64,000 bases of DNA from Oscillospiraceae bacterium (lineage in GTDB: Bacteria > Bacillota > Clostridia > Oscillospirales > Oscillospiraceae). The stretch is from positions 1 through 64,000 of the forward strand of contig JAFTVM010000069.1 in assembly GCA_017465745.1 (NCBI GenBank), written 5' to 3'. The position numbers and the translations under genes are program-made. The stretch's first letter is position 1. The number at the start of each line of letters is the position of its first letter. The notes under the pieces are model-generated. The model saw only the letters and a program-made list of their open reading frames with translations. It did not search any database and was not told where the DNA came from. Below are positions 31,298 through 48,315 of the stretch, piece by piece.

Positions 31298-31684
31298 TCA
31301 ACGCTCAACTTCCGTGACACACTCGTTTTTCAATTTGCCCACAAGAAATTGCAGAGCATCCACCACACGGGGGCGGATATCGCCGCCGATGAGGACGTAC
31401 ATGATGTCGTCACCCAGTGCCAGCTCGCCCTCATTCAGCCAGGCACGGACGTAGTAGATGCCGTCCATCTGATAGGTTTCAGCAATGGATGCATCGACTT
31501 TCTGCTGATCGTAGGTGAAATACATACCGCTGACATCGGGGGCATCTGCACCCTGACGGACTTTGGCCTTGGCGGTCTGGCGGACAGTACCGTTGTGGGT
31601 CAGGTACATGCCCACCTTGGCTGCGCTCTCATGGGACTTGGCCTCTTTCAGCCACTGGTCAATGGACGGAGGATTCTTCGCCAT
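31298..31684 (-). CDS. moaE: MoaE-like protein (molybdopterin synthase large-subunit family)
   Basis: 128 residues. The central VGMYLTHNGTVRQTAKAKVRQG and the C-terminal DGIYYVRAWLNEGELALGDDIMYVLIGGDIRPRVVDALQFLVGKLK match the MoaE pattern (…GEL.pGD.iv.v.v...R..af.A..f.id.lK). In E. coli MoaE two lysines (K119, K126) are essential; by my alignment the first is kept in GKLK, while the region of the second reads NECVTEVER without it. No MoaD-like gene is in the window. It is the last gene of the mod/moa operon, 3 bp after mogA. Confidence 0.65.
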   Translation of the reverse strand: MAKNPPSIDQWLKEAKSHESAAKVGMYLTHNGTVRQTAKAKVRQGADAPDVSGMYFTYDQQKVDASIAETYQMDGIYYVRAWLNEGELALGDDIMYVLIGGDIRPRVVDALQFLVGKLKNECVTEVER

Positions 31685-36426: not shown

Positions 36427-36448
36427 CCGGGTAAGAGAGGTGATTTTC

Positions 36449-37324
36449 TTATGCAACAGGGGTGAAGCCCACGTTTTCAAAGACAGCGTCAGCAGCGTCG
36501 CTGGTCAGGAACTCCAGGAAAGCCTTGGCAGCTTCCACATTCTTGGAGACGTTCATGACAGCGGCAGGGTAAATGACCTGACCGCACATTTCGGCGGTGG
36601 CAGTGTCCACGACGGTCAGACCGGCAGAGAAGGCGTCCGTCTGGTAGATAATGCCGCAGTCAACGGTGGCTTCAGAAACCTGAGTGGTGACTTCCTTGAC
36701 GTTGGAGCCATAGGTGATGGAACCGGCAGCGGCCAGATCAGCTTCGACCAGTTCGAAGTAGGTCAGGATCTTCTGGGTGTACTGGCCAACGGGAACGTCG
36801 GCGTTGCCCATAGCCAGCATAATGGAAGCATCCTTCAGACCGGCAATCAGATCGTCATAAGAGTTGATGCCAGCAGGGTTGCCTTCGGGAACAGCCAGGG
36901 CAACCTTGTTCTCCAGAATGTTGAAGCGAGTGCCTTCCAGAACGAAGTCCAGACCTTCGGTGTTGACAGCAGCGTCAGCAGTGATGTCCAGCTGGTTCAT
37001 CTGCTTCTGACCGGCGGAGATGAAGATGTCCACATCAGCACCTTCCTGGATCTGAGTCTTCAGGGTACCGGAAGAGTCGAAGTTGAAAACGATGGTCACT
37101 TCGGGATGGTCGGCCATGTACTGGTTGCCCAGCTCGGTCAGAGTTTCGGTCATGGAAGCAGCAGCAAAGACGATCAGTTCCACGGAATCTTCCTGGACGG
37201 TGTTCTGGTCTTCGGTCTGGTTGTCGGCGGGTTCGCTGGGCTCGGTGGGGGTCTCGGTGTTGCCGCAAGCGGTGAAGCTGAACACCAGGGTCAGCGCCAG
37301 CAGCAGTGCAAGAATCTTTTTCAT
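36449..37324 (-). CDS. modA: molybdate-binding lipoprotein ModA
   Basis: 291 residues. The lipoprotein signal is KKILALLLALTLVFSFTACGN (cysteine near residue 20), followed by an acidic, proline- and threonine-rich linker. The ModA fold begins SVELIVFAAASMTETLTELGNQYM (about 47-70), with FNFDSSGTLKTQIQEGADVDIFISAGQKQMNQL (anion-binding serines) and later TVDCGIIYQTDAF. It binds molybdate or tungstate outside the membrane. First gene of the operon running to moaE; two Crp-type sites precede it. Confidence 0.93.
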   Translation of the reverse strand: MKKILALLLALTLVFSFTACGNTETPTEPSEPADNQTEDQNTVQEDSVELIVFAAASMTETLTELGNQYMADHPEVTIVFNFDSSGTLKTQIQEGADVDIFISAGQKQMNQLDITADAAVNTEGLDFVLEGTRFNILENKVALAVPEGNPAGINSYDDLIAGLKDASIMLAMGNADVPVGQYTQKILTYFELVEADLAAAGSITYGSNVKEVTTQVSEATVDCGIIYQTDAFSAGLTVVDTATAEMCGQVIYPAAVMNVSKNVEAAKAFLEFLTSDAADAVFENVGFTPVA

Positions 37325-37373: not shown

Positions 37374-37415
37374 ATGATACGACATTTCGCCAGAAAATGT
37401 CGTTGTTTCTGCAAC
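37374..37415 (-). promoter_or_regulatory. modA promoter-proximal Crp-type site and -10
   Basis: GTTGTTTCTGCAAC (37402-37415) is centred at 37408.5; TATCAT on the minus strand (37379-37374) is centred exactly 32 bp below it. The start should be near 37367, 43 nt before the modA ATG. This is the class II activator arrangement seen at the other sites of the set. Confidence 0.65.
37379..37403. promoter_or_regulatory. inverted repeat in the modA promoter
   Basis: ACGACATTT (37379-37387) and AAATGTCGT (37395-37403) form a perfect 9-bp inverted repeat with a 7-bp spacer. It fills the space between the proximal Crp-type site and its -10 hexamer, a good place for a repressor such as a ModE- or TunR-like oxyanion sensor. 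No candidate repressor gene is in the window. Confidence 0.5.
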
Positions 37416-37432
37416 ACCGCTAATCTTTTTTC

Positions 37433-37477
37433 TTTATAAGTTGCGAAAAAAGATAGCGAAGTTGTAAATGCAACTTC
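37433..37477 (-). promoter_or_regulatory. modA distal Crp-type site and -10
   Basis: GAAGTTGTAAATGCAACTTC (37458-37477) is a palindrome around the core GTTG-N6-CAAC; TATAAA on the minus strand (37438-37433) is centred 32 bp away. The two sites before modA are 59 bp apart, the same distance as the two before the first Crp/Fnr gene. Confidence 0.65.
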
Positions 37478-37553
37478 ACCATAGACAAATGTATGATAAT
37501 ATACGCCTGGTAGCGCGCTTTTGTGGAGAGAGGCGCCTTCCTCCTTTCAAGCA

Positions 37554-37584
37554 GATCCCCCGGCACTCACCGTGCCGGGGGATC
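37554..37584. terminator. terminator after the Mop gene
   Basis: GATCCCCCGGCAC (37554-37566) pairs perfectly with GTGCCGGGGGATC (37572-37584), loop of five. It separates the crp/xdhC/mop transcript from the modA promoter, although the U-tract on the minus strand is poor. Confidence 0.7.
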
Positions 37585-37600
37585 CATGTTTTATCACATA

Positions 37601-37813
37601 TCAATCATCCACAGCCACCATGACGGAGGTGGCCTTTACCACGGCGTAGGCTTCGCCGCCGATCTTCAGGCCCAGCTCCTCAATGGCGCCCATGGAAATG
37701 GTGGCGCTCATGACGTTGCCGCCGCCGATGTCGATCTTGACGATGCCGTTGACCGCACCGGAGATAATCTCCAGAACGGTACCCTTGAACTGATTTCTTG
37801 CGCTTATTTTCAT
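37601..37813 (-). CDS. Mop-type molybdate-binding TOBE protein
   Basis: 70 residues, a single TOBE/Mop domain: MKISARNQFKGTVLEIISGAVNGIVKIDIGGGNVMSATIS then AIEELGLKIGGEAYAVVKATSVMVAVDD. Molbindins of this size form hexamers that store molybdate or tungstate in the cytosol. It is 24 bp downstream of xdhC and ends the transcript that begins with the first Crp/Fnr gene. Confidence 0.93.
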   Translation of the reverse strand: MKISARNQFKGTVLEIISGAVNGIVKIDIGGGNVMSATISMGAIEELGLKIGGEAYAVVKATSVMVAVDD

Positions 37814-37837
37814 AGTATTATCTCCTTATAAAAAATG

Positions 37838-38869
37838 TTAGTGCATCGGACAGCCGTGGACCGTTACGCCGGTGGCTTCCCGTCGCAGGGCACGGACATA
37901 AATCATCTCGCCGGTGATGCTGACAGCAATCTCTTCAGGTGTCACAGCCTTGATGGATACGCCCACAGGGGTGTGGACCCTTGCGATGGCCTCCTCCGGC
38001 ACGCCCCGGTCACGGAGCCGCTGATTGACGGTGGCCGTCTTTTTCCGGGAGCCGATGACGCCCACATAGGCAAAACCGCCCCGCAGCACCTGATCCTGAA
38101 CTTCCAGATCGTAGCTGTGGCCGCTGGTCATCACAACGATGTAGTCATCTTCGGTAAAGCTGATATAGTCAGCCAGCCGGGTGTAATCACCTGCAATGAT
38201 GTTCTCTGCCGTGGGGAAATTCTCCCGGTTGGCGTATTCCTCGCGCTCATCAAAGACTGTCACCCGGAATCCCACACTATTCAGCAAAGGAGCCAGTGCC
38301 TGGGCGCAGTGACCGCAGCCGAAGATAAAGGCACGTTCGCCGATGGGCAGAGGCAGGCAGAAATGGTCGGCGCTCTGGAACGGAATCCAGCCATTGCGGG
38401 TCAGAGAACCGGGTACGGTATCGCCCAGAATCTCTCCGCCATTTCCATCCAGCAGGGCAGGCTCGCTGCCGTCGGTCTTCAGCACCAGCCAGCCGGGCTG
38501 ACGCTTGGCCACCCGGTCCAGGATAGTGCCTGCCAGAGCCACCCAGGCTTCACTGTTACCGGGGATATACTGGAACAGCACCTTCACATCGCCGCCACAG
38601 ACCATGCCGATATCTTCCTTGGCCCGCTCATGGAGCTGGAACAGATGGCAGGCCGACTTCTTTTGCTGAATCAGCTCCAGGGCCATGGCTTCTGCACGCT
38701 CCTCCACCGCGCCGCCGCCGATGGTGCCCAGAATCCGTCCGTCGGTACCCACCAGCATCTGAGAGCCTGCACCTCTGGGGGTGGAGCCCTTGTCAGCAAT
38801 GATCGTTACCAGAACCGTATCACGGTTTTTCTCCATCTCGTATAAAAGCTTCGCAAAAATTCGATCCAT
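37838..38869 (-). CDS. XdhC family molybdenum-hydroxylase maturation protein
   Basis: 343 residues. XdhC N-terminal signature VLVTIIADKGSTPRGAGSQMLVGTDGRILGTIGGGAVEERA (about 18-58) with MVCGGDVKVLFQYI; the C-terminal Rossmann part starts AFIFGCGHCAQALAPLL (about 195) and continues YVGVIGSRKKTATVNQRLRDRG and TPVGVSIKAVTPEEIAVSITGEMI. XdhC proteins bind, sulfurate or insert the molybdenum cofactor into xanthine-dehydrogenase-type enzymes. No such hydroxylase is in the window, so its client is elsewhere. Confidence 0.92.
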   Translation of the reverse strand: MDRIFAKLLYEMEKNRDTVLVTIIADKGSTPRGAGSQMLVGTDGRILGTIGGGAVEERAEAMALELIQQKKSACHLFQLHERAKEDIGMVCGGDVKVLFQYIPGNSEAWVALAGTILDRVAKRQPGWLVLKTDGSEPALLDGNGGEILGDTVPGSLTRNGWIPFQSADHFCLPLPIGERAFIFGCGHCAQALAPLLNSVGFRVTVFDEREEYANRENFPTAENIIAGDYTRLADYISFTEDDYIVVMTSGHSYDLEVQDQVLRGGFAYVGVIGSRKKTATVNQRLRDRGVPEEAIARVHTPVGVSIKAVTPEEIAVSITGEMIYVRALRREATGVTVHGCPMH

Positions 38870-38873
38870 GATA

Positions 38874-39593
38874 TTACTCCTTTATGTCTGCCGTATGGAA
38901 TTTCAGAATTGCCAGATTCCGCAAATGGGGCATATAATACGGGAATTGCGGGTGTTCAATCTTGACCAGCCTGCCGAGAAGAAATTCATCCGTGATGTCA
39001 GACTTATCCTCATCCTTGCTGTAGATCTCAAAGAATCGCCGGGCATCCTCCAGACTGCGGAAGGGCTGGCCAAACTCCAACGCCAATCTGGTTTCCTCAT
39101 AAGGGATCCCCAAATCACGCAGCACTTCCTGGGAGCTTCGGTAGCCATAGCTGCCTGTAGGATGGTGGCCCACAGAGAAACGGTGGGAGGTGTAGGTCCG
39201 GGTGATGATAAATACATTGCCTTTGCACTGCCGCTTTGCCACATCAAGGATTTCATGGATCCTGCCGAAGAAGCAGAACACCATGGCATCATACTTCTCC
39301 TGGGGTGCCATGTTCTGAATGGCGCCGTTGCGGATGGAGATATTGGTGATCCCTCTTGCGCGGCAATTCTCCTCCAGAACCCGGAGCGGTTCCGCATTCT
39401 TTTCCACAGCGCTGATCCTGCCAACATAGGGTGCCAATTCCAAAGACAGATAGCCCAGACCGCAGCCGGCGTCGCAGATGTGCATATCCTTTGTCATATC
39501 AGGCGCCAGCCGCTTTACCAGTTCCTGATTGTATGTCCCATATTCCGAGGCATCCCGCATGAAGCGGATCATGTCCTCAAACCATAATTGCAT
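38874..39593 (-). CDS. SAM-dependent methyltransferase, class I
   Basis: 239 residues from ATG 39593, which has GGGGAG ten bases upstream; an ATG at 39611 lies inside the preceding gene. SAM-binding motif I is HICDAGCGLGYLSLELAP (about 38-55), followed by ISAVEKNAEPLRVLEENCRARG and YDAMVFCFFGRIHEIL. The fold resembles CbiT-like and small-molecule methyltransferases. It is locked between the first Crp/Fnr gene and xdhC, so a role connected with molybdenum or tungsten cofactors is possible; the substrate is unknown. Confidence 0.8.
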   Translation of the reverse strand: MQLWFEDMIRFMRDASEYGTYNQELVKRLAPDMTKDMHICDAGCGLGYLSLELAPYVGRISAVEKNAEPLRVLEENCRARGITNISIRNGAIQNMAPQEKYDAMVFCFFGRIHEILDVAKRQCKGNVFIITRTYTSHRFSVGHHPTGSYGYRSSQEVLRDLGIPYEETRLALEFGQPFRSLEDARRFFEIYSKDEDKSDITDEFLLGRLVKIEHPQFPYYMPHLRNLAILKFHTADIKE

Positions 39594-39597
39594 CAAT

Positions 39598-40281
39598 TTA
39601 ATACTCCCCATTCTTTTGATCCCAGTTGAGCAGTGTAAATGTATTCCGGTTGAACTTGATGATCCCTTCCTTCTCCATCTGACTCAGCTCATGGGAAAGA
39701 CAAGTCCGGTTCACACAAAGATAGGAAGCCATTTCCTCTCTTGTAAATGGCACAGAGAACGTGGCCGAATGCCGCTTATTTGCCTGCATGATCAGATAGG
39801 TCATGATCCGGTCCCGGATACCCTTCTGGAACAGAATCGCCAGACGGTATTCCTTGCGGATATTTTCATCAGAAATCAGCATCAGAAGCTTACCCAGAAT
39901 GGCCAGCCTGGTGGATTGCGGAATAATTCCGGCTTCCAGAAGCAGCTTGCAAGGAAACAGCAGCACCTGCGTCTGCTGCATGGCCTGGGCATAGTAGGGC
40001 GAAACCCTGCTCCCGGTGTAGATTAGATCCGCACCGAAATGGTCTCCGGCCTCCAGAACGCCCACAATGCCGTAATTTCCATTGCCGTAAATGTGGATCA
40101 GATTCAGCCGTCCTTCCATCACAACACCAAAATAATCAAGCTTCTCCTGAAAAGAAATCAGGTAATTTCCTTTCGGAATGTCCTGGATCCTTCCATGGGG
40201 CAGGATCTCATATTCAATTGTTTTCTCAGACAGGTCTGAGAATAAAAAGGATTCCTTCAGAATCCGCACAAGTTGATCCAT
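39598..40281 (-). CDS. Crp/Fnr family transcriptional regulator (first of two)
   Basis: 227 residues. Cyclic-nucleotide-binding-like domain at residues 10-125 (KGNYLISFQEKLDYFGVVMEGRLNLIHIY, then GVLEAGDHFGADLIYTG), long dimer helix, and a C-terminal HTH (EEMASYLCVNRTCLSHELSQMEKEGIIKFNRNTFTLL, about 185-220). There are no N-terminal cysteines for an iron-sulfur cluster. The recognition helix is nearly the same as in the second regulator at 45932. Its promoter has two GTTG-N6-CAAC sites, suggesting autoregulation. It is the first gene of the crp-methyltransferase-xdhC-mop operon. Confidence 0.92.
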   Translation of the reverse strand: MDQLVRILKESFLFSDLSEKTIEYEILPHGRIQDIPKGNYLISFQEKLDYFGVVMEGRLNLIHIYGNGNYGIVGVLEAGDHFGADLIYTGSRVSPYYAQAMQQTQVLLFPCKLLLEAGIIPQSTRLAILGKLLMLISDENIRKEYRLAILFQKGIRDRIMTYLIMQANKRHSATFSVPFTREEMASYLCVNRTCLSHELSQMEKEGIIKFNRNTFTLLNWDQKNGEY

Positions 40282-40313
40282 AGCGTATCCTCAACACAGT
40301 ATAATCTTGGTAA

Positions 40314-40355
40314 ATCATAGCATACTCTGCCGAAAATTGCGGTTGTTAAAGCAAC
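40314..40355 (-). promoter_or_regulatory. Crp-type site and -10 before the first Crp/Fnr gene
   Basis: GTTGTTAAAGCAAC (40342-40355), centre 40348.5, and TATGAT on the minus strand (40319-40314), centre 40316.5, are 32 bp apart. Transcription would begin about 26 nt before the ATG at 40281. Confidence 0.65.
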
Positions 40356-40400
40356 GATATGTTGAAGTTGGCGTACAAACTTTTCAAATATTTACCCAAA

Positions 40401-40414
40401 GTTGCCAATGCAAC
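40401..40414 (-). promoter_or_regulatory. upstream Crp-type site before the first Crp/Fnr gene
   Basis: GTTGCCAATGCAAC lies 59 bp upstream of the proximal site. The hexamer 32 bp below it is only TTGTAC, so it may be a secondary promoter or an auxiliary site. The rest of 40282-40605 holds a terminator and no gene. Confidence 0.55.
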
Positions 40415-40563
40415 TGCACCGCAAGTTTTTTTCGCTGTAATCAGTTCAGCTGAACAGAAAGGATTCCAGGCCCCTTTTCCTGGCGTGGTTCATGGGACCC
40501 GGCATCCTTTGGTCCGCCATTTGAGTAGTGCGTACTGTAAGGTTCCTTCTAAGTGCCAGAACG

Positions 40564-40593
40564 AATGCCCCGGTACTTCTGTACAGGGGCATT
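40564..40593. terminator. hairpin after the cytidylate-kinase-like gene
   Basis: AATGCCCC plus GTAC (40564-40576) pairs with GTAC plus GGGGCATT (40581-40593) around a TTCT loop, with one G-A mismatch. T-rich sequence (TGTTTTC) follows on the plus strand. Confidence 0.6.
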
Positions 40594-40605
40594 TGTTTTC
40601 ATCTG

Positions 40606-41184
40606 TTAATACAGTTCCGTAATCAGGTCAACACATTTGTCAATTCCCAGTTCACCGCTGTCCAGGGTGATGTGGTAATTTTGAGCGCGTCCCCACTTCA
40701 TGTTGGTGTAGAACCGGTGGTAAGCCGCCCGGCGCTTATCCTTGTCCTTCAGACGCTGCTCAGGGGATACTTCCCGCTCGCCGTATTCTCTGACAATGCG
40801 CTCGGCCCGGAATTCCATACTGGCATGGATGAACACCTTCAGGCAGTCGGCCTTGTCCTGCAGAATGTAATCGGCACACCGCCCCACAATGACACAGGGG
40901 CCTTTTTCAGCCAGTTCCTCAATGATCTGATACTGGATATTCCAGAGATAGTCTTCGTTGGTGGGACCAAAGGAGCGGTTACCGAAGGCGGAAGCCAGGA
41001 AGCCGCCGGGGGCATATTCTCCCGCATCCTTTATGTAGGTTTCCGCAAAGCCGCTTTCCTGGGCGATCTTCTGAATGAGCTCGCTGTCATAGCAGGGAAT
41101 GCCCAGCTTCTGGGCCACCTTTCTGCCGATGGTGCGCCCACCGCTGCCGAATTCACGGCTGATGGTAATGACTCTGTTACCCAT
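40606..41184 (-). CDS. cytidylate kinase-like family protein
   Basis: 192 residues. The N-terminal nucleotide-binding loop is ITISREFGSGGRTIGRKVAQKLGIPCYDSELI (about 5-36), where GSGGRTIG replaces the usual GxxGxGK(S/T) of true Cmk. Later VSLWG-like nuclease-free segments: VIVGRCADYILQDKADCLKVFIHASMEFRAERIVREYGE and KDKRRAAYHRFYTNMKWG (LID-type arginines). Members of this family in gut Clostridia are common and their substrate is unsettled. It begins right after the MATE gene stop, so the two are co-transcribed. Confidence 0.85.
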   Translation of the reverse strand: MGNRVITISREFGSGGRTIGRKVAQKLGIPCYDSELIQKIAQESGFAETYIKDAGEYAPGGFLASAFGNRSFGPTNEDYLWNIQYQIIEELAEKGPCVIVGRCADYILQDKADCLKVFIHASMEFRAERIVREYGEREVSPEQRLKDKDKRRAAYHRFYTNMKWGRAQNYHITLDSGELGIDKCVDLITELY

Positions 41185-42588
41185 TTATTGATCCTCCTTC
41201 AGTTCCTGATAGGTTCTGCGGATCAGGAATGCCGCAATCACAAATGTCAGAATATCGGACACAGGCATGGAATATATCACGCCGTCCAGCCCGAAGAAAA
41301 GGGGCAGAACGATCGCAAAGCCCACACCGAACACCACTTCCCGGATCATGGACAGCGCCGTGGATGCCGCTGCCTTGCCCATGGCCTGCAGGAAGATGAA
41401 GCATGCCTTATTCACACAGGCAAAGATCATCATGCACAAATAGATCCGGAATGCCTTGATGGCAAACTCCGTATAGTAGACGCTTTCGTTGGCTGCGCCG
41501 AAGATGTTGATGAGCTGCTGGGGGAAGAACTCCACCAGGATCAGCGCCACCGCACCGACGGCTGCTTCCGCAATCAGCAGCTTGGTGAACAGCTCCTTGA
41601 CCCGCAGCTTCTTGCCTGCACCCATGTTAAAGCCCACAATGGGAATACAGCCTGCTGCCATGCCAACCACGATGGAAATGACAATCTGGAAGAACTTCAT
41701 GACGATGCCCACCACCGCCATGGGGATCTGGGCGTACTGCTCCTGGCCAAAGATGGCATCCAGTGCGCCGTATTTGCGGAGCATATTGTTGATAGCCGCC
41801 ATGGCAGCAACCAGGCTGATCTGGGACAGGAAGCTGGTAATGCCCAGAATCAGGGTTCTGCCGCACACCTGTCCGCTGAGCGCGTAATCTGCTTTGGCAG
41901 GCTTGATAATCTTCATGTTCAGCAGATACCACACGGCCAGAAGCGCCGTTGCCGCCTGGCCGATGACCGTTGCCACGGCAGCGCCCATCATGCCCCACCG
42001 GAAGGTAAAAATGAAGATGGGATCGAGAATGATGTTGATGACCGCACCAGCCAGGGTGGAAACCATGGCAAATTTCGGATTGCCATCGGCACGGATGATG
42101 GGATTCATCGCCTGTCCGAACATGTAGAACGGAATACCCATGGAGATGTAGAAGAAGTATTCTTTGGAATGATGGAAGGTTTCTTCGTTAACCGTTCCGC
42201 CAAACATAGCGATGATGGGATCTGCAAAAATCAGATAGACAGCCGTCAGCACCAGACTGCTGACCAACGTCATGATGACGGAGTTGCCCACGCTCTTTTT
42301 TGCTGTGTCGGAATCCCGTCTGCCCAGGCTGATGCTAACATAGGCACAGCAGCCGTCACCGATCATGACCGCAATCGCCAAGGCAACCACCGTCAACGGA
42401 AATACGACTGTATTTGCCGCATTGCCGTAGGAGCCGAGATAACTGGCGTTGGCGATGAAGATCTGGTCAACGATGTTATACAGGGCGCCCACCAGCAATG
42501 AGATGATGCAGGGAACGGCGTACTGCCCCATCAGCTTGCCGATGCGCTCCGTTCCCAGGAATTGATTGGAATGTTCCATTGGATTCAC
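41185..42588 (-). CDS. MATE family efflux transporter
   Basis: 467 residues with twelve membrane helices. N-terminal RIGKLMGQYAVPCIISLLVGALYNIVDQIFIA and VVFPLTVVALAIAVMIGDGCCAYVSISLGRRD are typical of the DinF/NorM-like MATE family; the second half repeats the topology from GQEQYAQIPMAVVGIVMKFFQIVISIVVGMAAGCIPIVGFNMGAG. It exports cationic drugs or metabolites in exchange for sodium or protons. It is followed by the cytidylate-kinase-like gene with no gap. Confidence 0.92.
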   Translation of the reverse strand: MNPMEHSNQFLGTERIGKLMGQYAVPCIISLLVGALYNIVDQIFIANASYLGSYGNAANTVVFPLTVVALAIAVMIGDGCCAYVSISLGRRDSDTAKKSVGNSVIMTLVSSLVLTAVYLIFADPIIAMFGGTVNEETFHHSKEYFFYISMGIPFYMFGQAMNPIIRADGNPKFAMVSTLAGAVINIILDPIFIFTFRWGMMGAAVATVIGQAATALLAVWYLLNMKIIKPAKADYALSGQVCGRTLILGITSFLSQISLVAAMAAINNMLRKYGALDAIFGQEQYAQIPMAVVGIVMKFFQIVISIVVGMAAGCIPIVGFNMGAGKKLRVKELFTKLLIAEAAVGAVALILVEFFPQQLINIFGAANESVYYTEFAIKAFRIYLCMMIFACVNKACFIFLQAMGKAAASTALSMIREVVFGVGFAIVLPLFFGLDGVIYSMPVSDILTFVIAAFLIRRTYQELKEDQ

Positions 42589-42678
42589 CTTTCCTTTACA
42601 AAAAATGCGTGCAGTCTGACGAAGCTGGATTTACGCCGTCAGGCTACACGCTGTTGAGAATATTGCGAGCAAACAAAA

Positions 42679-42712
42679 AAGTGCGTAAGTCCGCATCCGG
42701 ACTTACGCACTT
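42679..42712 (-). terminator. terminator of the FecBCD-like importer operon
   Basis: AAGTGCGTAAGTCCG (42679-42693) pairs perfectly with CGGACTTACGCACTT (42698-42712), and TTTTTTGTTT follows on the minus strand. A strong rho-independent terminator. Confidence 0.9.
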
Positions 42713-42770
42713 CGTGCTACTCGATGGTTGGATTATATCACATGATCCGCCGAAAAATCAAGCAGAAAAA

Positions 42771-43898
42771 TCAGTCAGCCAAGAAGGCGTTGACGGTCAG
42801 AGCGGAATACTGCTCCTCGGTCAGCTGGCAGTTATAGAACAGCTCGTAGTACTCGTAGATCTCAGCCTTGACGTCATAGTCGCAGTACTCAGGGTACAGC
42901 TCGGCGGTCAGCCAGATCAGGCCCAGATAACGCTGGACAGCAGGAGGAGAGCCCATCCAGTTGTGGGGGCCTTCGGGAACCTCGATGTAGTTGTTGTTGG
43001 CGATTGCATTGATGCCGGTCCAGGTGTCGGTCTCGGCGGCAGTCTCGAAAATGCTGTCAGGCGCGAACAGGACGAAATCGGGGTTCCACAGGGCGATCTG
43101 CTCCATGGTGACTTCGTTGCCGGTACCCTTGCCCACGGGATTCTCAACAACAGCCAGGTTGTTGGTCAGCATATCAATCAGCTCGGCATGGTAGGAGTCC
43201 TTGGCCAGAACATTCAGGCCCTGCTCGCCCAGGACATACAGGGCATTGACTTTGTTATCGCCCACCTGCTCCATGATGGAGACGGTACGGTTATAGACAC
43301 GCTCACAGAACTGAGCCAGCTCCTCGCCCTTCTCCTCACGGCCCAGCAGCGCGCCCAGGGTGCGGAAGGTCTGGGGCATGGTCTCCAGGGTTGCAGAAAT
43401 GAAGACGGCAGGAATAGTGGTCTGCTCTTCCAGAGCGTTCAGATCTTCAACGGCGTTCTTCTTGGCCTCGCCGATGTCGATGATAATCTGAGGATCAGCC
43501 AGAGCCAGCTCTTCCACGTTCAGGTCGGCAGAGCCGTAGAGCTGACCGAAGAAGGGCAGATTGCGGTACTCTTCGGGGACAAAGCCCTCAGCGGAGTCAT
43601 ACCACTTGGCGGACAGGCCCACGAACATATCGGGGGCGATGGCATACAGCACGATCTGTGCCAGAGGGCCGGTGGACACAATCCGGGTGATCTCAGAGGG
43701 GATCTCCACCTCACGGCCCAGGTCATCGGTGAAAACCACAGTCTCAGGGGTCTCCGGCTGGTTCTGGGTCTCGTTTTCGTTGTCAGCCACGGTAGGAGGC
43801 TCGGTCTGACCGTCGGTGGGGTCAGCGGGGGTGGTGCCGCAGGCGATCAGGCTGAACATCATAGCCAGAACCAGCAGCAGGGAAATCAGTTTCTTCAT
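42771..43898 (-). CDS. FecB/BtuF/MolA-type substrate-binding lipoprotein
   Basis: 375 residues. Lipoprotein signal KKLISLLLVLAMMFSLIACGT (cysteine at 20) and a long acidic linker precede the class III binding-protein fold: VVFTDDLGREVEIPSEITRIVSTGPLAQIVLYAIAPDMFVGLSAKW, then ADPQIIIDIGEAK and WNPDFVLFAPDSIFE. Such proteins bind siderophores, cobalamin, haem or, in the MolA group, molybdate/tungstate. The shared Crp-type promoter with modA and the second ModA-like importer makes molybdate or tungstate the best guess. It is the last of three genes of its operon. Confidence 0.85.
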   Translation of the reverse strand: MKKLISLLLVLAMMFSLIACGTTPADPTDGQTEPPTVADNENETQNQPETPETVVFTDDLGREVEIPSEITRIVSTGPLAQIVLYAIAPDMFVGLSAKWYDSAEGFVPEEYRNLPFFGQLYGSADLNVEELALADPQIIIDIGEAKKNAVEDLNALEEQTTIPAVFISATLETMPQTFRTLGALLGREEKGEELAQFCERVYNRTVSIMEQVGDNKVNALYVLGEQGLNVLAKDSYHAELIDMLTNNLAVVENPVGKGTGNEVTMEQIALWNPDFVLFAPDSIFETAAETDTWTGINAIANNNYIEVPEGPHNWMGSPPAVQRYLGLIWLTAELYPEYCDYDVKAEIYEYYELFYNCQLTEEQYSALTVNAFLAD

Positions 43899-43913
43899 GC
43901 TTCTTTTCTCCTT

Positions 43914-44693
43914 TTACTTATGAATATTCGCCGGGACGCAGACGCGAATCTCGTCACCGCGCATACTGCAAACCTCAACATCCACGCCATACAGGGTGGA
44001 GATGAGGGAATTGCTGATGGTTTCCTGGGGCGTTCCCCAGGCCAGAACCTTGCCACCGTAGAGGGCCAGGTTCTTGTCGGAATAGAGGTAGGCCTGATCC
44101 GGGTCATGGGTGGACTGGATGATGGTATAGCCGTCAGCGGTTAGGCTTTTTACCGTCTTCATCACTCGCAGCTTGTTGCCGAAGTCCAGATTGGCGGAGG
44201 GTTCGTCCATGACCAGGATCTTCGCCTGCTGGGCAATGGCTCTGGCGATCAGCACTAGCTGACGCTCACCGCCGCTGATGTTGCCGCAGCCCCGGTCACG
44301 CAGATGAGAAATGCCCATCCGTTCCAGAGCCGCTTCCGCCAGGGCGTGCTGCGCCTTGCCGGGAGAGGCAAACCGGCCCAGCTGGGCCGTGGTGCCCATC
44401 AGAACCATATCAAAGACAGTGAAATTGAACACAGGATTGTGGGACTGGGGAATGTAGGCCACATGACGGGACAGTTCCGCTGCCGTCATATCCTGAATAT
44501 TTCTTCCGTCAATGGTAACACTGCCGGATGTAGGTTCCAGCAGGCCCAGCATACACCGGAACAGGGTACTCTTGCCCACACCGTTGGGGCCCAGCACGGA
44601 AATAAACTCGCCCAACTGGGCTTCGTAGGAAACGCCCTTCAGCACCTCATGACTGCCGTAGGAAAACTGAAGATCTTGAATGTTCATACTCAC
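43914..44693 (-). CDS. FecE/MolC-type ABC transporter ATP-binding protein
   Basis: 259 residues. Walker A GPNGVGKSTLFR (about 34-45), signature NISGGERQLVLIARAIAQQ (about 136), Walker B ILVMDEPSANLDFGNK, then IIQSTHDPDQAYLYSD. The overlap with the permease gene is 4 nt. It energises the importer formed with 44690-45712 and 42771-43898. Confidence 0.92.
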   Translation of the reverse strand: MSMNIQDLQFSYGSHEVLKGVSYEAQLGEFISVLGPNGVGKSTLFRCMLGLLEPTSGSVTIDGRNIQDMTAAELSRHVAYIPQSHNPVFNFTVFDMVLMGTTAQLGRFASPGKAQHALAEAALERMGISHLRDRGCGNISGGERQLVLIARAIAQQAKILVMDEPSANLDFGNKLRVMKTVKSLTADGYTIIQSTHDPDQAYLYSDKNLALYGGKVLAWGTPQETISNSLISTLYGVDVEVCSMRGDEIRVCVPANIHK

Positions 44694-45712
44694 AGCCGCT
44701 CACCATCCCTTGTAATCAGATAGATAAAGAAAGGCGCACCGATGAAGGAGGTCAGGATACCAATGGGAATCTCGGTGGCAAACAGATTGCGGGACACATT
44801 ATCCACCATCAGCAGGAAGATGGCGCCGAACAGCATGGAAGCCGGCATCAGATGACGGTAGTTGTTGCCCACCATCCGCCGGGTCAGGTGCGGGATCACC
44901 AGACCTACCCACCCGATGACACCGCTGACAGAAACGGCGGCGGCAGTGACCAGGGTGGCGCAGAGAATGGTCACGGTGCGAAGCTGCTTTGCATTGACAC
45001 CCATGGTTCTGGCTTCCTCATCGCCCAGGGTCAGAATGTTGATCCGCCAGCGCAGCAAAAGCAGCGGAACCAGACCGATGGCCATGGGCACGATGGCAAA
45101 CCAGACATCCTCCGGCCGGGTGCCGTTGAGGCTGCCCATGAGCCAGTAAGTAATGGCAGGCAGCTGGTCTTCGGGGTCTGCCACCAGCTTAATGAGGGAG
45201 GTGCCTGAGGAGATCAGCGAACCAATCATAATGCCCGCCAGAATCAGACCTAGCACCCGCTTACCCTTGGCCCGGCTGCCCACATACATGACAAGCAATA
45301 CTGTACCGATACTGCCGATAAAGGCGAAGACCATGATGAACGTTCCGCCCAAGTTCAGCAGGATCGCCAGTGCCGCACCAAAAGCGGCACCGGAGGAAGC
45401 GCCCAGAATATCGGGGGCCGCCATGGGATTCTGGAACACACCCTGATAGGATGCACCGGCGGAAGCCAGACAGCAGCCCACCAGACAGGCCAGAATGATC
45501 CGTGGCAAGCGATGGTTCATCAGCAGGGATTCCTGGGTTTTCGACCAGAAGGGTTCCATCTCAACGAACTTGGAACCGATGATGCCGCACAGTTCCCGAA
45601 TACCAATGGGATACCGTCCCAGGGTCACAGAACCCACCACCGTTGCAAACAGCACCACGATCAGTATGACAATGATCGTACCGTATGATAATCTTTGTTT
45701 CTTCGCTGTCAT
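44690..45712 (-). CDS. FecCD/MolB-type ABC importer permease
   Basis: 340 residues with about ten helices, the usual BtuC/FecD architecture. Landmarks are RLPRIILACLVGCCLASAGASYQGVFQNPMAAPDILGASSGAAFGAALAI (about 70-120) and the C-terminal GVIGWVGLVIPHLTRRMVGNNYRHLMPAS (about 265-295) that contacts the ATPase. First gene of the importer operon; a Crp-type site with a -10 at the set distance lies upstream at 45772-45813. Confidence 0.93.
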   Translation of the reverse strand: MTAKKQRLSYGTIIVILIVVLFATVVGSVTLGRYPIGIRELCGIIGSKFVEMEPFWSKTQESLLMNHRLPRIILACLVGCCLASAGASYQGVFQNPMAAPDILGASSGAAFGAALAILLNLGGTFIMVFAFIGSIGTVLLVMYVGSRAKGKRVLGLILAGIMIGSLISSGTSLIKLVADPEDQLPAITYWLMGSLNGTRPEDVWFAIVPMAIGLVPLLLLRWRINILTLGDEEARTMGVNAKQLRTVTILCATLVTAAAVSVSGVIGWVGLVIPHLTRRMVGNNYRHLMPASMLFGAIFLLMVDNVSRNLFATEIPIGILTSFIGAPFFIYLITRDGERL

Positions 45713-45771
45713 ATTGACTAATCTCCTTACCAGATGAGCCTCGGATATTCACCTGTATGATTGTTTCGATA

Positions 45772-45813
45772 ATTGTACAATACATTCTCCAAAAAGTCGG
45801 TTGTATCCCCAAC
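45772..45813 (-). promoter_or_regulatory. Crp-type site and -10 before the FecCD-like operon
   Basis: GTTGTATCCCCAAC (45800-45813), centre 45806.5, and TACAAT on the minus strand (45777-45772), centre 45774.5, are 32 bp apart. The site is the least regular of the set (no G before CAAC). Expected leader about 53 nt. Confidence 0.6.
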
Positions 45814-45865
45814 CAGTTCTTTTATTTTTCGTAATAAAAAATTTGCTCGAATAGTGAAAAACAAT

Positions 45866-45911
45866 ACGCCGCGCCGGACTGCCGATACTCACGGCATCTC
45901 CAGCGCGGCGT
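45866..45911 (-). terminator. terminator of the second Crp/Fnr gene
   Basis: ACGCCGCGC (45866-45874) pairs with GCGCGGCGT (45903-45911), with an inner TGCCG/CGGCA stem; ATTGTTTTTC follows on the minus strand. Confidence 0.8.
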
Positions 45912-45931
45912 TATTCATGTTGATGGTACTA

Positions 45932-46609
45932 TCATGTTTGCCAGCTTTGGTAATCATGCAACGTAAACTGATTCTTGTGGAAAGAGATCAGCCCATCCTT
46001 CTCCATCATACTCAGTTCGTGAGACAGACAGCTTCGATTAACGCAGAGGATCTCAGCCATCTCTTCTCTTGACAGCGGGATCTCAAATATTTTGCAGCGG
46101 TAATGGTCTGCCATCCGCATCAGATACATCACAACGCGTTCCCGCAGGCCATTCAGCGAAAGCAATGCGTAATGATACTGCTGCCCGATACAGTTCTCTG
46201 ACAGCAGACGCAGCAGCCGGTTCAGGAGTTCCTGCCTGCAGTCTTCGTCAATCATTCCCTTCTCAGCAATCATCTGATTCGGAAAAGATATGACCGTTGC
46301 AGCTGAAACAGCCTCGGCACTCTGGGATGTCATCATCTGGTCAGAACAGATCCATTCGGCACCCAAAATGTCTCCGCAGGTGGCCACACGCTGCAGTGTG
46401 CTTCCTCCGAAAGGCAGGCTGTACTCGATATGGATCCTGCCCGACAGAACTACCGCAAATGCAGTCATGTCCTGATGGGGAACGATAAACTGATGCTTCC
46501 GCGCCAGCTTCAGGATCTGCCCCAGGGGCAGAATATCCCGTTCAATGACTTCTTCAGGCAGTGTTTTGAATAATTCAGACTGTTTAAGAATTTGCAGCAC
46601 ATCACGCAT
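45932..46609 (-). CDS. Crp/Fnr family transcriptional regulator (second of two)
   Basis: 225 residues from ATG 46609 with GGAAG upstream; the frame continues to 46690 but that would include the promoter. Sensor domain KHQFIVPHQDMTAFAVVLSGRIHIEYSLPFGGSTLQRVATCGDILGAEW, then the HTH EEMAEILCVNRSCLSHELSMMEKDGLISFHKNQFTL (about 180-215). The recognition helix CVNRSCLSHELS differs from that of the first regulator by one residue, so both should read the same operator. It is monocistronic, divergent from fmdE, and has its own GTTG-N6-CAAC site. Confidence 0.92.
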   Translation of the reverse strand: MRDVLQILKQSELFKTLPEEVIERDILPLGQILKLARKHQFIVPHQDMTAFAVVLSGRIHIEYSLPFGGSTLQRVATCGDILGAEWICSDQMMTSQSAEAVSAATVISFPNQMIAEKGMIDEDCRQELLNRLLRLLSENCIGQQYHYALLSLNGLRERVVMYLMRMADHYRCKIFEIPLSREEMAEILCVNRSCLSHELSMMEKDGLISFHKNQFTLHDYQSWQT

Positions 46610-46649
46610 AATCTTCCAACTCTCTGTGTCATACTTTGGATTTGACTCG

Positions 46650-46691
46650 ATTATACAGCAATGGTTTTCTATTTGCGGTTGCTTCAGCAAC
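46650..46691 (-). promoter_or_regulatory. Crp-type site and -10 before the second Crp/Fnr gene
   Basis: GTTGCTTCAGCAAC (46678-46691), centre 46684.5, and TATAAT on the minus strand (46655-46650), centre 46652.5, are 32 bp apart. Expected start near 46643, leader about 34 nt. The same site is about 77 bp upstream of the divergent fmdE start point. Confidence 0.7.
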
Positions 46692-46726
46692 TGCCGGAAA
46701 AATAAAGTGAACAGAAGTTACAGGCA

Positions 46727-46755
46727 TTGCATCATAAGTCTGCCTGCGGTATAAT
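46727..46755 (+). promoter_or_regulatory. sigma-A-type promoter of the FmdE gene
   Basis: TTGCAT (46727-46732) and TATAAT (46750-46755) are 17 bp apart. Start near 46762, leader about 30 nt. Unlike its neighbours it has a fair -35 and may not need the activator. Confidence 0.65.
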
Positions 46756-46791
46756 AGACCGAAACGATTTTGAAACGGAGTTGAATCAATC

Positions 46792-47313
46792 ATGACTGCA
46801 TGGGAAAAATGTGTGGATTTCCACGGCCATAGCTGCGGCGGACTGCGGATCGGCTATGCGGCAGCGGAATATGCCATGGAACTGCTGGATATCACCTTCA
46901 GCGATAACGAGCAGGTGGTCTGCATCTCGGAAAACGATGCCTGCGGCGTGGACGCCATTCAGGTCATGCTGGGCTGCAGCATCGGCAAGGGAAACCTGCT
47001 GTTCCACATGACCGGAAAACAGGCCTTTTCCTTCTACAACCGGGCAACGGGCGATTCCGTCCGTCTGGTCCTGAAGCCCAAGCCACTGAATATGACCCCG
47101 GAGGAATCCAAAGGCTATTACTTCAGCCGCAGCAGCCGAGAGCTGTTCGATGCCATGGAAACCAAGATCCCCCTGCCTGCTCCGGCCCGGATCTTCGACA
47201 ATTACTACTGCGAATGCTGCGGCGAAAAGACGGGCGGCAACTGGATCAGACTGGCAGACAACAAAAAACTGTGTCTGGATTGCTACGAAAGCTATAACCG
47301 ATTTGACGTATAA
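46792..47313 (+). CDS. FmdE family protein with C-terminal zinc ribbon
   Basis: 173 residues. The FmdE domain covers about residues 3-120: EKCVDFHGHSCGGLRIGYAAAEYAM with the conserved H-x-C, then SENDACGVDAIQVMLGCSIGKGNL and a YNRATGDSVRLVLKP segment. A C-terminal ribbon CECCGEKTGGNWIRLADNKKLCLDCY binds zinc. FmdE was named from formylmethanofuran dehydrogenase, a Mo/W enzyme, but in bacteria it is found beside ModABC-like genes and may act in metal or cofactor handling. The context here fits that. Confidence 0.9.
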   Translation: MTAWEKCVDFHGHSCGGLRIGYAAAEYAMELLDITFSDNEQVVCISENDACGVDAIQVMLGCSIGKGNLLFHMTGKQAFSFYNRATGDSVRLVLKPKPLNMTPEESKGYYFSRSSRELFDAMETKIPLPAPARIFDNYYCECCGEKTGGNWIRLADNKKLCLDCYESYNRFDV

Positions 47314-47320
47314 GATAAAT

Positions 47321-47349
47321 GACCACTGCTCCGTTGCGGTGGTCTTTTT
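47321..47349 (+). terminator. terminator of the FmdE gene
   Basis: GACCACTGC (47321-47329) pairs with GCGGTGGTC (47336-47344), including one G-T pair, followed by TTTTTC. Confidence 0.8.
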
Positions 47350-47397
47350 CTACATGATATTGACTTACTCAAGGAATTCAAATTAATAAATTGCCTT

Positions 47398-47439
47398 GTT
47401 GCCAACGCAACTACATTTTTGTAGGTATTGTGATATGAT
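47398..47439 (+). promoter_or_regulatory. Crp-type site and -10 before the second ModABC-like operon
   Basis: GTTGCCAACGCAAC (47398-47411), centre 47404.5, and TATGAT (47434-47439), centre 47436.5, are 32 bp apart. Start near 47446, leader about 30 nt. This is the only plus-strand member of the set with a target gene. Confidence 0.7.
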
Positions 47440-47475: not shown

Positions 47476-48315
47476 ATGAAAAAAGTATTTGCACTGCTGT
47501 TGGCTGCCGTCATGCTGCTGAGTATGACTGCCTGCAGCCAGAGTGGCGAGGTCCCCGAAGCCACCGATGATTCCGGCGCACAAACAGAGAATACCGCCGA
47601 AGCAGATCAGAATGAAACGGTGGAAAACGAAAGTGTCAGCCTTGAGGGTCACTCCCTGATGATCTACTGTGGTGCCGGCATGAAGCAGCCTTTCCAGGAG
47701 ATCGTCAACGCGTTCCAGGAAAAGACCGGATGCGAAATGAATGTGACCTTTGCCAACGCCGCACAGATCCAGACCCAGATTACCGAAGCACAGGAAGGCG
47801 ATTTCTTCATCGCCGGTGCAGCAGGCGAGCTGAAACCCGTGGCAGACTATGTAGAAAGCTCTGTCAACCTTGTCAAGCACATTCCTGTTCTGGCTGTGGC
47901 CGCAGGCAACCCCAAGAACATCACTTCCATTACCGATCTGGCGAACGAGGAGATCATAACCGTCATCGGTGATGCCCAGTCCACTCCCATCGGCAAGATA
48001 GCCATGCAGATCTTCCAGGATCACGAGATCACCGACCAGGTCAATCTGGCCGCCACCACTACCACCGCCCCCCAGTTGGCTACCCTGATCGCGCTGAGCG
48101 AAGCTGATGCCGCCATCATCTGGAAGGAAAACTGCAACGTAGAGGGCGTGGAGATCTGTGCCCTGACTGAGATGGAAGCCTATATCAAGACCATTCCTGC
48201 CGCACACCTGAACTTCGGCACCAACACCAAAGCCGCTGAGGTTTTCCTGGAATACCTGAATGCCGAAGAGGTACAGGCGATCTGGATGTCCTACGGCTAC
48301 GAACTGGCAGAATGA
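47476..48315 (+). CDS. ModA-like molybdate/tungstate-binding lipoprotein (second copy)
   Basis: 279 residues after a GAGAGGAG ribosome site. Signal and lipobox KKVFALLLAAVMLLSMTACSQ (cysteine at 20), acidic linker, then the ModA-type fold SLMIYCGAGMKQPFQEIVNAFQEKTGCEMNVTFANAAQIQTQITEAQEGDFFIAGAAGELKPV. The TIGDAQSTPIGKIA-like segment (VIGDAQSTPIGKIAMQIF) and AAIIWKENC near 215 also fit. It is clearly diverged from the ModA at 36449, so it may prefer tungstate; that is inference. Confidence 0.85.
   Translation: MKKVFALLLAAVMLLSMTACSQSGEVPEATDDSGAQTENTAEADQNETVENESVSLEGHSLMIYCGAGMKQPFQEIVNAFQEKTGCEMNVTFANAAQIQTQITEAQEGDFFIAGAAGELKPVADYVESSVNLVKHIPVLAVAAGNPKNITSITDLANEEIITVIGDAQSTPIGKIAMQIFQDHEITDQVNLAATTTTAPQLATLIALSEADAAIIWKENCNVEGVEICALTEMEAYIKTIPAAHLNFGTNTKAAEVFLEYLNAEEVQAIWMSYGYELAE

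What the first reader, a model, noticed from the sequence alone, without database searches (positions are those of the whole stretch)
37374..47439. Seven GTTG-N6-CAAC sites with a fixed distance to the -10 hexamer define a Mo/W regulon
Seven sites (37402, 37461, 40342, 40401, 45800, 46678, 47398) all fall in promoter regions of two Crp/Fnr genes and three oxyanion-type importers. In six of them a -10 hexamer (TATCAT, TATAAA, TATGAT, TACAAT, TATAAT, TATGAT) is centred exactly 32 bp from the site centre. That is the class II geometry (site centred near -41.5) of Crp-type activators, with leaders of 26-53 nt in five promoters. Six of seven read GTTGY-N3/4-GCAAC. I know of no described regulon with this operator.
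Basis: partly seen in the sequence, partly recalled or inferred. Interest (0 to 1): 0.93.

Follow-up and report, generated by a model that had tools for sequence, protein, structure and literature searches.

The report
Crp-type switch for molybdenum uptake genes
Seven copies of a short DNA palindrome stand upstream of this bacterium's molybdenum/tungsten uptake and regulator genes, six of them exactly 22 bases from a -10-like promoter box, and two Crp/Fnr-type proteins, relatives of putative nitric-oxide-response regulators, likely bind there and would switch these genes on; one of the operons carries a molybdenum riboswitch instead in many related bacteria.

Summary
GTTG-N6-CAAC occurs exactly 7 times in the window (1.09 expected), always upstream of genes, six with a -10-like hexamer 22 bp away (site centre at -41.5). 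Genome-wide 12 of 28 core sites have that spacing; 11 of these 12 are at Mo-linked genes or at the hcp regulator locus. The Mo/W reading holds: in 400 family genomes 16 regulators in 14 genomes form a distinct Crp/Fnr subfamily (helix NRxxLSH in 15 of 15 aligned and 120 of 120 listed database relatives), beside mod, FecCD/BtuF-type, xdhC or yqeC-yqeB-selD operons with the same site and spacing (one target cut off by a contig end). Of 29 other best modA loci none has the site upstream and 17 carry the Moco riboswitch; six Crp-site modA operons have no riboswitch match there. Correction: core and spacing are not Mo-specific. HcpR-like regulators across the class show them at their divergent promoter (35 of 38). 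The Mo subfamily differs in inner operator bases, recognition helix, and loss of four conserved Cys/His. Binding and class II activation are inferred; the signal (Mo/W or cofactor shortage) is predicted. Nothing was tested in cells.

The parts
37402..37415 (-). operator for modA1 operon, -10 TATCAT at 22 bp
37461..37474 (-). second, upstream operator of modA1 (59 bp away); TATAAA at 22 bp; also TAATAT at 22 bp on the + side, with no evident gene there
36449..37324 (-). ModA1, molybdate-binding protein (TIGR01256 over cut-off)
35700..36371 (-). ModB1 permease
   Evidence: BPD_transp_1; gene order
34653..35699 (-). ModC1 ATPase
   Evidence: ABC_tran; gene order
33623..34639 (-). MoeA-like molybdopterin-binding protein
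   Evidence: MoCF_biosynth
32667..33620 (-). MoaA
   Evidence: Radical_SAM, Mob_synth_C
32179..32664 (-). MoaC
31688..32206 (-). MogA/MoaB-type protein
   Evidence: MoCF_biosynth
31298..31684 (-). MoaE-family protein, last gene of the mod1-moa run (labelled MOSC in my scripts; Pfam says MoaE)
40342..40355 (-). operator for crp1-methyltransferase-xdhC-mop, -10 TATGAT at 22 bp
40401..40414 (-). second, upstream operator (59 bp away), no -10 at 22 bp
39598..40281 (-). Crp1, Crp/Fnr regulator of the Mo-type subfamily (helix NRTCLSH)
38874..39611 (-). SAM methyltransferase, CbiT-like, below the CbiT cut-off
37838..38869 (-). XdhC-family maturation factor (Pfam XdhC domains; TIGR02964 just over cut-off)
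37601..37813 (-). Mop/TOBE-domain protein, 70 aa
45800..45813 (-). operator for the FecCD-type importer, -10 TACAAT at 22 bp
44690..45712 (-). FecCD-type permease
43914..44693 (-). ATPase of the same importer (by eye and gene order)
   Evidence: no domain search of its own
42771..43898 (-). BtuF-type binding lipoprotein; weak partial match to H. influenzae HI_1472
46678..46691 (-). operator for crp2, -10 TATAAT at 22 bp
45932..46609 (-). Crp2, Mo-type regulator (helix NRSCLSH) with a diverged sensor domain
46792..47313 (+). FmdE-family protein, divergent from crp2; no -10 at 22 bp of its own
47398..47411 (+). operator for modA2 operon, -10 TATGAT at 22 bp
47476..48315 (+). ModA2 (TIGR01256 over cut-off)
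48312..49115 (+). ModB2 permease
49108..49830 (+). ModC2 ATPase
49827..50582 (+). DUF364 putative heavy-metal chelation protein, kept beside modA2-modB2 in G022, G350 and G280

Best explanation
The seven palindromes are likely operators of a distinct Crp/Fnr subfamily (Crp1 and Crp2 here), which is predicted to sit at -41.5 and switch on, as a class II activator, three importers, Moco synthesis genes, xdhC and the regulators' own genes, probably when molybdenum/tungsten or the molybdopterin cofactor is short. Shown by sequence: the sites; their fixed 22-bp spacing to the -10; no -35 better than 4 of 6 at these promoters; the recurrence of site plus spacing beside the same regulator subfamily in 13 other genomes, mostly at recognisable Mo-linked operons; and the Moco riboswitch on many orthologous modA operons that lack the site. 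Inferred: that Crp1/Crp2 bind these sites and activate. Predicted only: direction and identity of the signal. In ten divergent loci (nine relatives and the paralogous C58 locus) the same site also covers about -36 to -23 of the crp promoter (-10 at 10 bp in nine, 11 in one), which would give autorepression; in the window both crp genes instead have the 22-bp, self-activating geometry. The subfamily probably arose from HcpR-like regulators: it keeps the outer GTTG and the spacing, but has lost their four conserved Cys/His and changed helix positions 179 and 185.
For: Sites and chance. Genome test: 12 of 28 core sites have a -10-like hexamer at 22 bp, namely 10 of 11 sites that I had marked as regulon-type beforehand and 2 of the other 17; one of those two (C89:13060) is upstream of an EF2568-type cysteine desulfurase (TIGR01977 over cut-off), the other (C91:8585) has no Mo link. 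Relatives: 16 regulators over 240 bits in 14 of 400 family genomes, next match 168 bits; operons beside them are mod1(-moa), FecCD/FecE/BtuF, modA2-modB2-DUF364, xdhC or yqeC-yqeB-selD-yedF. Spacing over 21 Mo-type sites, 42 flanks: 23 at 22 bp, 9 at 10 bp, at most 4 at any other spacing from 0 to 49; 20 of 21 sites have one at 22. Best -35 match (spacer 16-18) is 3 of 6 or less in 23 of 25 such promoters and 4 of 6 in two. Subfamily mark NRxxLSH: 15 of 15 and 120 of 120 listed homologues. Riboswitch swap: 0 of 29 other modA1 loci have the site upstream, 17 of 29 have RF01055; six Crp-site modA operons (window, C55, G034, G647, G746, G719) have no RF01055 match in the DNA searched, and G000 has none at all. 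No ModE over the cut-off in 14 genomes. All 14 genomes hold xanthine-dehydrogenase-type Mo hydroxylases.
Against: No binding or expression data. Core and spacing are shared with HcpR-like regulators, one of which is in the same genome with its ferredoxin-hcp operon (C60), so cross-binding is possible. 40401 has no -10 at 22 bp. modA1 has ACGACA (4 of 6) at an 18-bp spacer, so it may not depend wholly on an activator. Crp2's sensor domain has diverged (no SPY, no RKEYR-type stretch), so it may not sense what Crp1 senses. Sequence does not fix the direction of the signal. C55, C58, C60 and C89 are other contigs of a bin with 7.08% estimated contamination and may belong to a close second strain. 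ModE N-domain-like proteins occur below the cut-off in 12 of 14 genomes. G746 and G030 have a Moco riboswitch elsewhere in the genome. The six Crp-site modA operons were picked by their regulator or site, so only the missing riboswitch there is independent evidence; and not every searched stretch reaches the start of a longer operon.
Confidence: 0.8

Rival explanations
1. The Mo sites are part of the nitrosative-stress (HcpR) response: the genome's HcpR-like protein, or Crp1/Crp2 acting as NO sensors, control Mo genes, for instance because nitrogen oxides damage molybdoenzymes.
For: Same GTTG core and 22-bp spacing at 35 of 38 HcpR-like loci; the same genome has such a locus with ferredoxin and hcp genes (C60); the Mo subfamily is a branch of the same tree; in one relative (G145) an hcp-like gene (by eye) with its own GTTG-N6-CAAC site lies a few kb from the Mo-type regulator.
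Against: Four residues that 36 of 38 HcpR-like proteins keep (a Cys near position 28 and C-x3-C-x-[FY]-H) are lost in all 15 Mo-type proteins, and Glu72 (38 of 38) is absent in 15 of 15. Half-sites differ: C60 reads GTTGAA, the window GTTGC or GTTGT in 13 of 14. None of the window proteins annotated here is Hcp.
Confidence: 0.1
2. The sites are bound by a ModE-like winged-helix protein, and the Crp genes are only neighbours.
For: ModE N-domain-like proteins score 54-63 bits in 10 of 14 genomes and 20-22 bits in two more (cut-off 98.5).
Against: 0 of 14 over the cut-off; an operator lies in the promoter of, or at the 3' end of, the Crp gene itself in all 16 loci of the subfamily, and the same core marks HcpR-like Crp/Fnr genes that have no Mo link. 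Inner operator bases change together with the Crp recognition helix.
Confidence: 0.04
3. The proteins repress rather than activate the importers (bound when Mo is ample, like ModE).
For: A dimer at -41.5 overlaps the -35 region; importers are usually shut off by Mo (recalled).
Against: 23 of 25 promoters have a -35 of 3 of 6 or less, which fits dependence on an activator; the spacing is exact to the base pair in 20 of 21 sites, as contact with polymerase would demand, while a repressor should tolerate variation.
Confidence: 0.1

Closest known systems
HcpR (Crp/Fnr regulator of hcp/frdX in anaerobes; Rodionov et al. 2005, PMC1274295, passages seen)
   Same: Crp/Fnr fold; core GTTG-N6-CAAC and -10 at 22 bp are found at HcpR-like loci across the class here; that paper too reports co-variation of helix residues 180/181 with the operator.
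   Different: Targets are Mo/W genes, not hcp; helix N179 and H185 instead of mostly D/E179 and A/R/S/N185; lost Cys/His set; inner operator bases T-C or T-T (relatives) or C/T (window). The published HcpR2 consensus is GTAACnnnnGTTAC; other motifs for C. difficile and C. thermocellum (Ser181) are mentioned but not printed in the text.
E. coli CRP, class II activation
   Same: Site centred at -41.5 (class II value recalled); Arg180 kept in 15 of 15.
   Different: Glu181 is Ser/Thr, Arg185 is His; Glu72 and Arg82 of the cAMP pocket are absent in 15 of 15; operator core GTTG-N6-CAAC instead of GTGA-N6-TCAC (recalled).
Moco (molybdenum/tungsten) riboswitch RF01055 (PMC2408646, search listing with start of abstract seen)
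   Same: Found upstream of the orthologous modA1 operon in 17 of 29 relatives.
   Different: An RNA element in the leader, not a DNA operator; no match in this genome.
ModE
   Same: Regulates modABC in proteobacteria (recalled).
   Different: Another protein family; no match over the cut-off in the 14 genomes.

Membership tests
Crp/Fnr superfamily | cNMP-binding-type sensor domain and Crp-type HTH | tested here: met
   Pfam PF13545 over cut-off for both; PF00027 over cut-off for Crp1, below it for Crp2 (23.8 against 27.5); AlphaFold model of Crp1 pLDDT 89.6, top PDB matches GlxR, CRP, HcpR, NtcA
cAMP-responsive CRP | Glu72 and Arg82 of the phosphate pocket | tested here: not met
   0 of 15 Mo-type proteins keep either
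HcpR | adjacent, divergent hcp/frdX target | tested here: not met
   targets are Mo/W or Se-Mo cofactor genes; of HcpR-like loci 34 of 38 show an hcp or ferredoxin motif
HcpR | Cys28 and C-x3-C-x-[FY]-H set (found here, not from the literature) | tested here: not met
   36 of 38 HcpR-like, 0 of 15 Mo-type; C-x(2-4)-C-x-[FY]-H in 0 of 120 listed homologues
HcpR | GTTG-N6-CAAC operator, -10 at 22 bp (as found here in HcpR-like loci) | tested here: met
HcpR | response to NO | not testable with these tools
   needs cells or protein
Class II Crp-type activation | site centred at -41.5 with a fixed distance to -10 | tested here: met
   20 of 21 sites at exactly 22 bp; transcription starts themselves are predicted
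Class II Crp-type activation | protein-polymerase contact and loss of expression without the protein | not testable with these tools
   -
ModE regulon | ModE over the curated cut-off in the genome | tested here: not met
   0 of 14 over cut-off
Moco riboswitch control | RF01055 in the modA leader | tested here: not met
   none in the window or in the genome

The most novel reading that the evidence does not exclude
A Crp/Fnr protein has taken over the post of the Moco riboswitch: descended from an HcpR-like regulator, it lost the ancestral Cys/His ligands, shifted its operator at the inner base pairs and became a direct sensor of molybdate/tungstate or of a molybdopterin intermediate (cPMP, itself a cyclic phosphate, is the most tempting candidate), so that a protein activator and an RNA aptamer do the same job on orthologous operons of related bacteria.
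Probability: 0.4. Interest if true: 0.88.

Novelty: new variant of a known kind. Interest (0 to 1): 0.74.

Why it matters
How bacteria without ModE control Mo/W uptake is little described as far as I know (recalled); these 14 genomes have no ModE over the cut-off, and this one has no Moco riboswitch match either. The finding names a candidate protein, its operator, its exact promoter geometry and its targets, all directly testable. It offers a natural comparison in which an RNA element and a protein operator occupy orthologous modA operons. It also gives, in one clade, matched sets of recognition helices and operators (R185 with GTTGCA in 8 of 8, G182 with GTTGAA in 5 of 5, Mo type with GTTGT in relatives), useful for the DNA-reading code of Crp/Fnr proteins. 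In one relative the same regulator type stands at genes of the selenium-dependent Mo cofactor, linking metal uptake with selenium use.

Tried and rejected
Core motif as a genome-wide mark: rejected, because GTTG-N6-CAAC alone is not enriched (28 against 54 backward); only the spacing separates. Strict GTTGTC-N2-GACAAC plus 22 plus TANNNT in 394 order genomes: 6 genomes, 5 of which carry a Mo-type regulator; the sixth (G253) has it at an HcpR-like gene with no Mo link. So the inner bases are a good but not absolute mark; G790 has a GTTGTC operator with Ala at position 185, so position 185 alone does not set it. Rfam on the window: only pemK RNA, no Moco RNA. Named relatives: one scan of genome contigs gave 2 weak loci, not used. 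Literature: searches listed no paper that I could recognise, by title and start of abstract, as describing a Crp/Fnr Mo/W regulon or this operator; listings are capped, the library lacks most subscription journals, and RegPrecise itself was not available. PMC1274295, PMC12915319, PMC12750200, PMC7759655 and PMC5322559 were seen by passages only, PMC2408646 only in the listing. Monophyly of the 15 Mo-type rows: the tree puts them together with G790 in one branch at 100/99, but the label needs 2 changes because G790 falls among them; 28% of 200 bootstrap trees have 1.

Rows dropped: A3 has 15 of the 16 regulators (G350, near-copy of G022, left out). The 21 sites leave out G350's site and two recognised later (C55:7264, C89:13060); one search includes those two. 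One search examined 45 HcpR-like or similar loci; 7 were not matched by my helix pattern (one of them G790) and are outside the count of 38. One search counts 13 relatives' sites, G790 included. In the modA comparison only 30 of 95 listed matches had loci (29 besides the window's own); 5 of the first 19 and 7 of the last 10 had no riboswitch match, some cut short by contig ends or lying inside a longer operon. In one search only part of each genome's first-look candidates was scored, so 16 is a lower bound. Of 465 database homologues the best 120 were listed and read.
Full report
OBSERVATION. GTTG-N6-CAAC occurs exactly seven times in the 64-kb window, at the coordinates given (expected 1.09). 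All seven lie upstream of genes, and six have a -10-like hexamer beginning exactly 22 bp from the palindrome on the side of the gene it would serve. That is a site centre at -41.5.

GENOME TEST. The bin holding the window (2.73 Mb, 122 contigs) has 28 core sites; the motif read backwards occurs 54 times, so the core alone is not enriched. I inspected all 28. Twelve have a -10-like hexamer at 22 bp on at least one side: six of the window's seven; two at a second mod-moa operon (C55:6195 and 7264; its proteins are 86-97% identical to the window's); one between a second xdhC and a third regulator (C58:3072); one between an HcpR-like regulator and a ferredoxin-hcp operon (C60:915); one upstream of an EF2568-type cysteine desulfurase (C89:13060; TIGR01977); and one other (C91:8585, GATAAT). 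Over the 56 flanks, spacing 22 has 14 hexamers and the next highest, spacing 10, has 6. With the stricter TANNNT the count at 22 bp is 12 of 56 flanks; the backward core gives 2 for its 54 places. Because estimated contamination is 7.08%, C55, C58, C60 and C89 may partly come from a close second strain.

THE REGULATOR SUBFAMILY. A profile of eight regulators searched in 400 family genomes gives 16 proteins above 240 bits in 14 genomes, then a gap to 168 bits (only part of the first-look candidates was scored). Fifteen were aligned (G350 omitted as a near-copy): Asn191, Arg192, Leu195, Ser196 and His197 are invariant, i.e. NRxxLSH. All 120 listed database homologues keep NRxxLSH.

WHERE THEY SIT. 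On the 22-bp side the loci hold: modABC1 with moeA/moa genes (G034, G746; cut by a contig end in G647; with a moeA-like gene first in G719), FecCD-FecE-BtuF importers (G137, G470, G726, G145), modA2-modB2-DUF364 (G022, G350, G280), xdhC (C58), and in G030 yqeC-yqeB-selD-yedF and a cysteine desulfurase, the genes of the selenium-dependent Mo cofactor. In G599 the contig ends after a lipoprotein start, so the target is not identified. In G030 xdhC follows the regulator. ModA1 and ModA2 of the window pass the curated modA cut-off. The BtuF-type protein has a partial, weak match to H. influenzae HI_1472, recalled as the molybdate-binding protein MolA; its substrate is not settled by this.

SPACING. 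Over 21 Mo-type sites (42 flanks) -10-like hexamers number 23 at 22 bp, 9 at 10 bp and at most 4 at any other spacing from 0 to 49; 20 of 21 sites have one at 22. The nine 10-bp hexamers all face the crp gene of divergent loci (9 of 10 such loci; in the tenth, G647, the distance is 11), which puts the same dimer over -36 to -23 of the crp promoter. I read this as autorepression combined with activation of the target; it is inference. In the window neither crp gene has it; both have the 22-bp geometry. The best -35 match with a spacer of 16-18 bp is 3 of 6 or less in 23 of 25 promoters and 4 of 6 in two, both at the modA1 region of the window. This fits need of an activator, less clearly so for modA1.

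HCPR-LIKE RELATIVES. The next group of regulators, across the class, has the same core and spacing: of 38 HcpR-like loci with a recognisable helix, 35 have GTTG-N6-CAAC and all 35 have TANNNT at 22 bp on the divergent side; 34 of 38 loci show a ferredoxin or hcp motif. So the core and geometry are probably ancestral, and not Mo-specific. Between the groups three things differ. First, inner operator bases: relatives' Mo sites have T at position 5 in 26 of 26 half-sites and C (18) or T (8) at position 6; window half-sites have C 9, T 4, G 1 at position 5. HcpR-like sites read GTTGGA, GTTGTA or GTTGTT, GTTGAA or GTTGCA according to the helix: R185 with GTTGCA in 8 of 8, the G182 helix with GTTGAA in 5 of 5, and the C60 regulator of this genome (DRSGLSAEI, GTTGAA) fits as well. 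Second, the helix: N179 and H185 in 15 of 15 Mo-type; D/E179 in 33 of 38 and H185 in 2 of 38 others. Third, the sensor: Glu72 38 of 38 against 0 of 15; a Cys near position 28 and C-x3-C-x-[FY]-H 36 of 38 against 0 of 15. The window's helices carry Cys at CRP position 182 (NR[ST]CLSH) where the other Mo types have Ala or Val, and their operators differ too. G790 (outside the family) has the GTTGTC operator with Ala185, and G253 has it at an HcpR-like gene without Mo genes, so the code is not strict. The third regulator (crp3, C58) has the common NRSALSH helix but GTTGG half-sites, another departure.

RIBOSWITCH SWAP. Thirty modA1 loci, the best of 95 matches in 250 family genomes, were read. 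Apart from the window's own, 0 of 29 have GTTG-N6-CAAC upstream of modA (one has a core inside the gene) and 17 of 29 have the Moco riboswitch RF01055 near modA. The six modA1 operons with the Crp site (window, C55, G034, G647, G746, G719) have no RF01055 match in the DNA searched, and this genome has none. In G022, G350 and G280, where the site serves modA2, and in G599, RF01055 lies just upstream of modA1. G746 and G030 have one elsewhere. This is the strongest independent hint that the Crp protein answers to Mo, W or the cofactor. ModE is over the cut-off in 0 of 14 genomes; N-domain-like proteins score below it in 12 of 14.

CLIENT ENZYMES. All 14 genomes have xanthine-dehydrogenase-type Mo hydroxylases (PF02738); six have tungsten-type aldehyde oxidoreductases (PF01314), this one included; six have the DMSO-reductase type (PF00384), this one not. 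This does not decide between Mo and W.

STRUCTURE. The model of Crp1 (pLDDT 89.6) matches GlxR, mycobacterial CRP, P. gingivalis HcpR and NtcA. It adds the fold only; no ligand is implied. Residues 72 and 82 of the cAMP pocket are not kept.

MECHANISM. Best reading: Crp1/Crp2 dimers occupy the sites and help polymerase at promoters with a weak -35, raising import and Moco synthesis when Mo, W or cofactor is short. Binding, activation and signal are inferred or predicted. Ligand candidates, from chemistry alone: molybdate/tungstate, or a molybdopterin intermediate such as cPMP; the loss of Glu72 and Arg82 speaks against a plain cyclic-nucleotide mode.

NOVELTY. None of the ten literature searches listed a paper recognisable as describing such a regulon. 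HcpR operator-helix co-variation is published (PMC1274295, passages). I rate it a new variant of a known kind.

Noticed in passing
L088-L143 (HcpR-like loci): Clostridial HcpR-like regulators share a Cys near position 28 and a C-x3-C-x-[FY]-H stretch (36 of 38), which looks like a metal or Fe-S ligand set; P. gingivalis HcpR is reported as a heme protein with Met68 as a likely ligand (PMC12750200, passages).
   Followed up: partly
L112 (C55) 1017-7215 against window 31298-37324: A second modABC-moeA-moa operon, proteins 86-97% identical, in the same bin, with two operators, one of them (6195) between modA and modB. Either a duplication or a second strain.
   Followed up: partly
L112:7264: By eye, the operator lies in the stem of a hairpin followed by a T run on the minus strand, so it may double as a terminator of the upstream gene.
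   Followed up: no
window 37402/37461 and 40342/40401: Both two-site promoters have the sites exactly 59 bp apart (centres at -41.5 and -100.5 of the downstream start); function of the distal site unknown.
   Followed up: no
L192:9002 and 9905 (G253): Two GTTGTC-N2-GACAAC sites, one near the start of and one downstream of an HcpR-like gene, the second with TATAAT at 22 bp before two membrane-protein genes (DUF308-like and TspO-like by eye): another regulon with the same inner bases.
   Followed up: partly
L191 (G790): A lone outgroup regulator with a GTTGTC operator 22 bp before its own -10, beside a methyltransferase 26% identical to the one in the crp1 operon; a MobB-like gene lies about 9 kb away (by eye).
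   Followed up: partly
L053:5625 (G145): GTTGTTATTACAAC with TAGGAT at 22 bp before an hcp-like gene (by eye), a few kb from the Mo-type regulator.
   Followed up: no
L048:3072 (C58): crp3 has the common Mo-type helix but a GTTGG-N4-CCAAC operator, with -10 hexamers at 22 bp on both sides and TATAAT at 10 bp towards crp3.
   Followed up: partly
window 30121-30182, minus strand: pemK RNA (RF02913) match over the gathering score.
   Followed up: no
window 49827-50582: DUF364 protein kept beside modA2-modB2 in three other genomes (G022, G350, G280): candidate new Mo/W handling protein.
   Followed up: no
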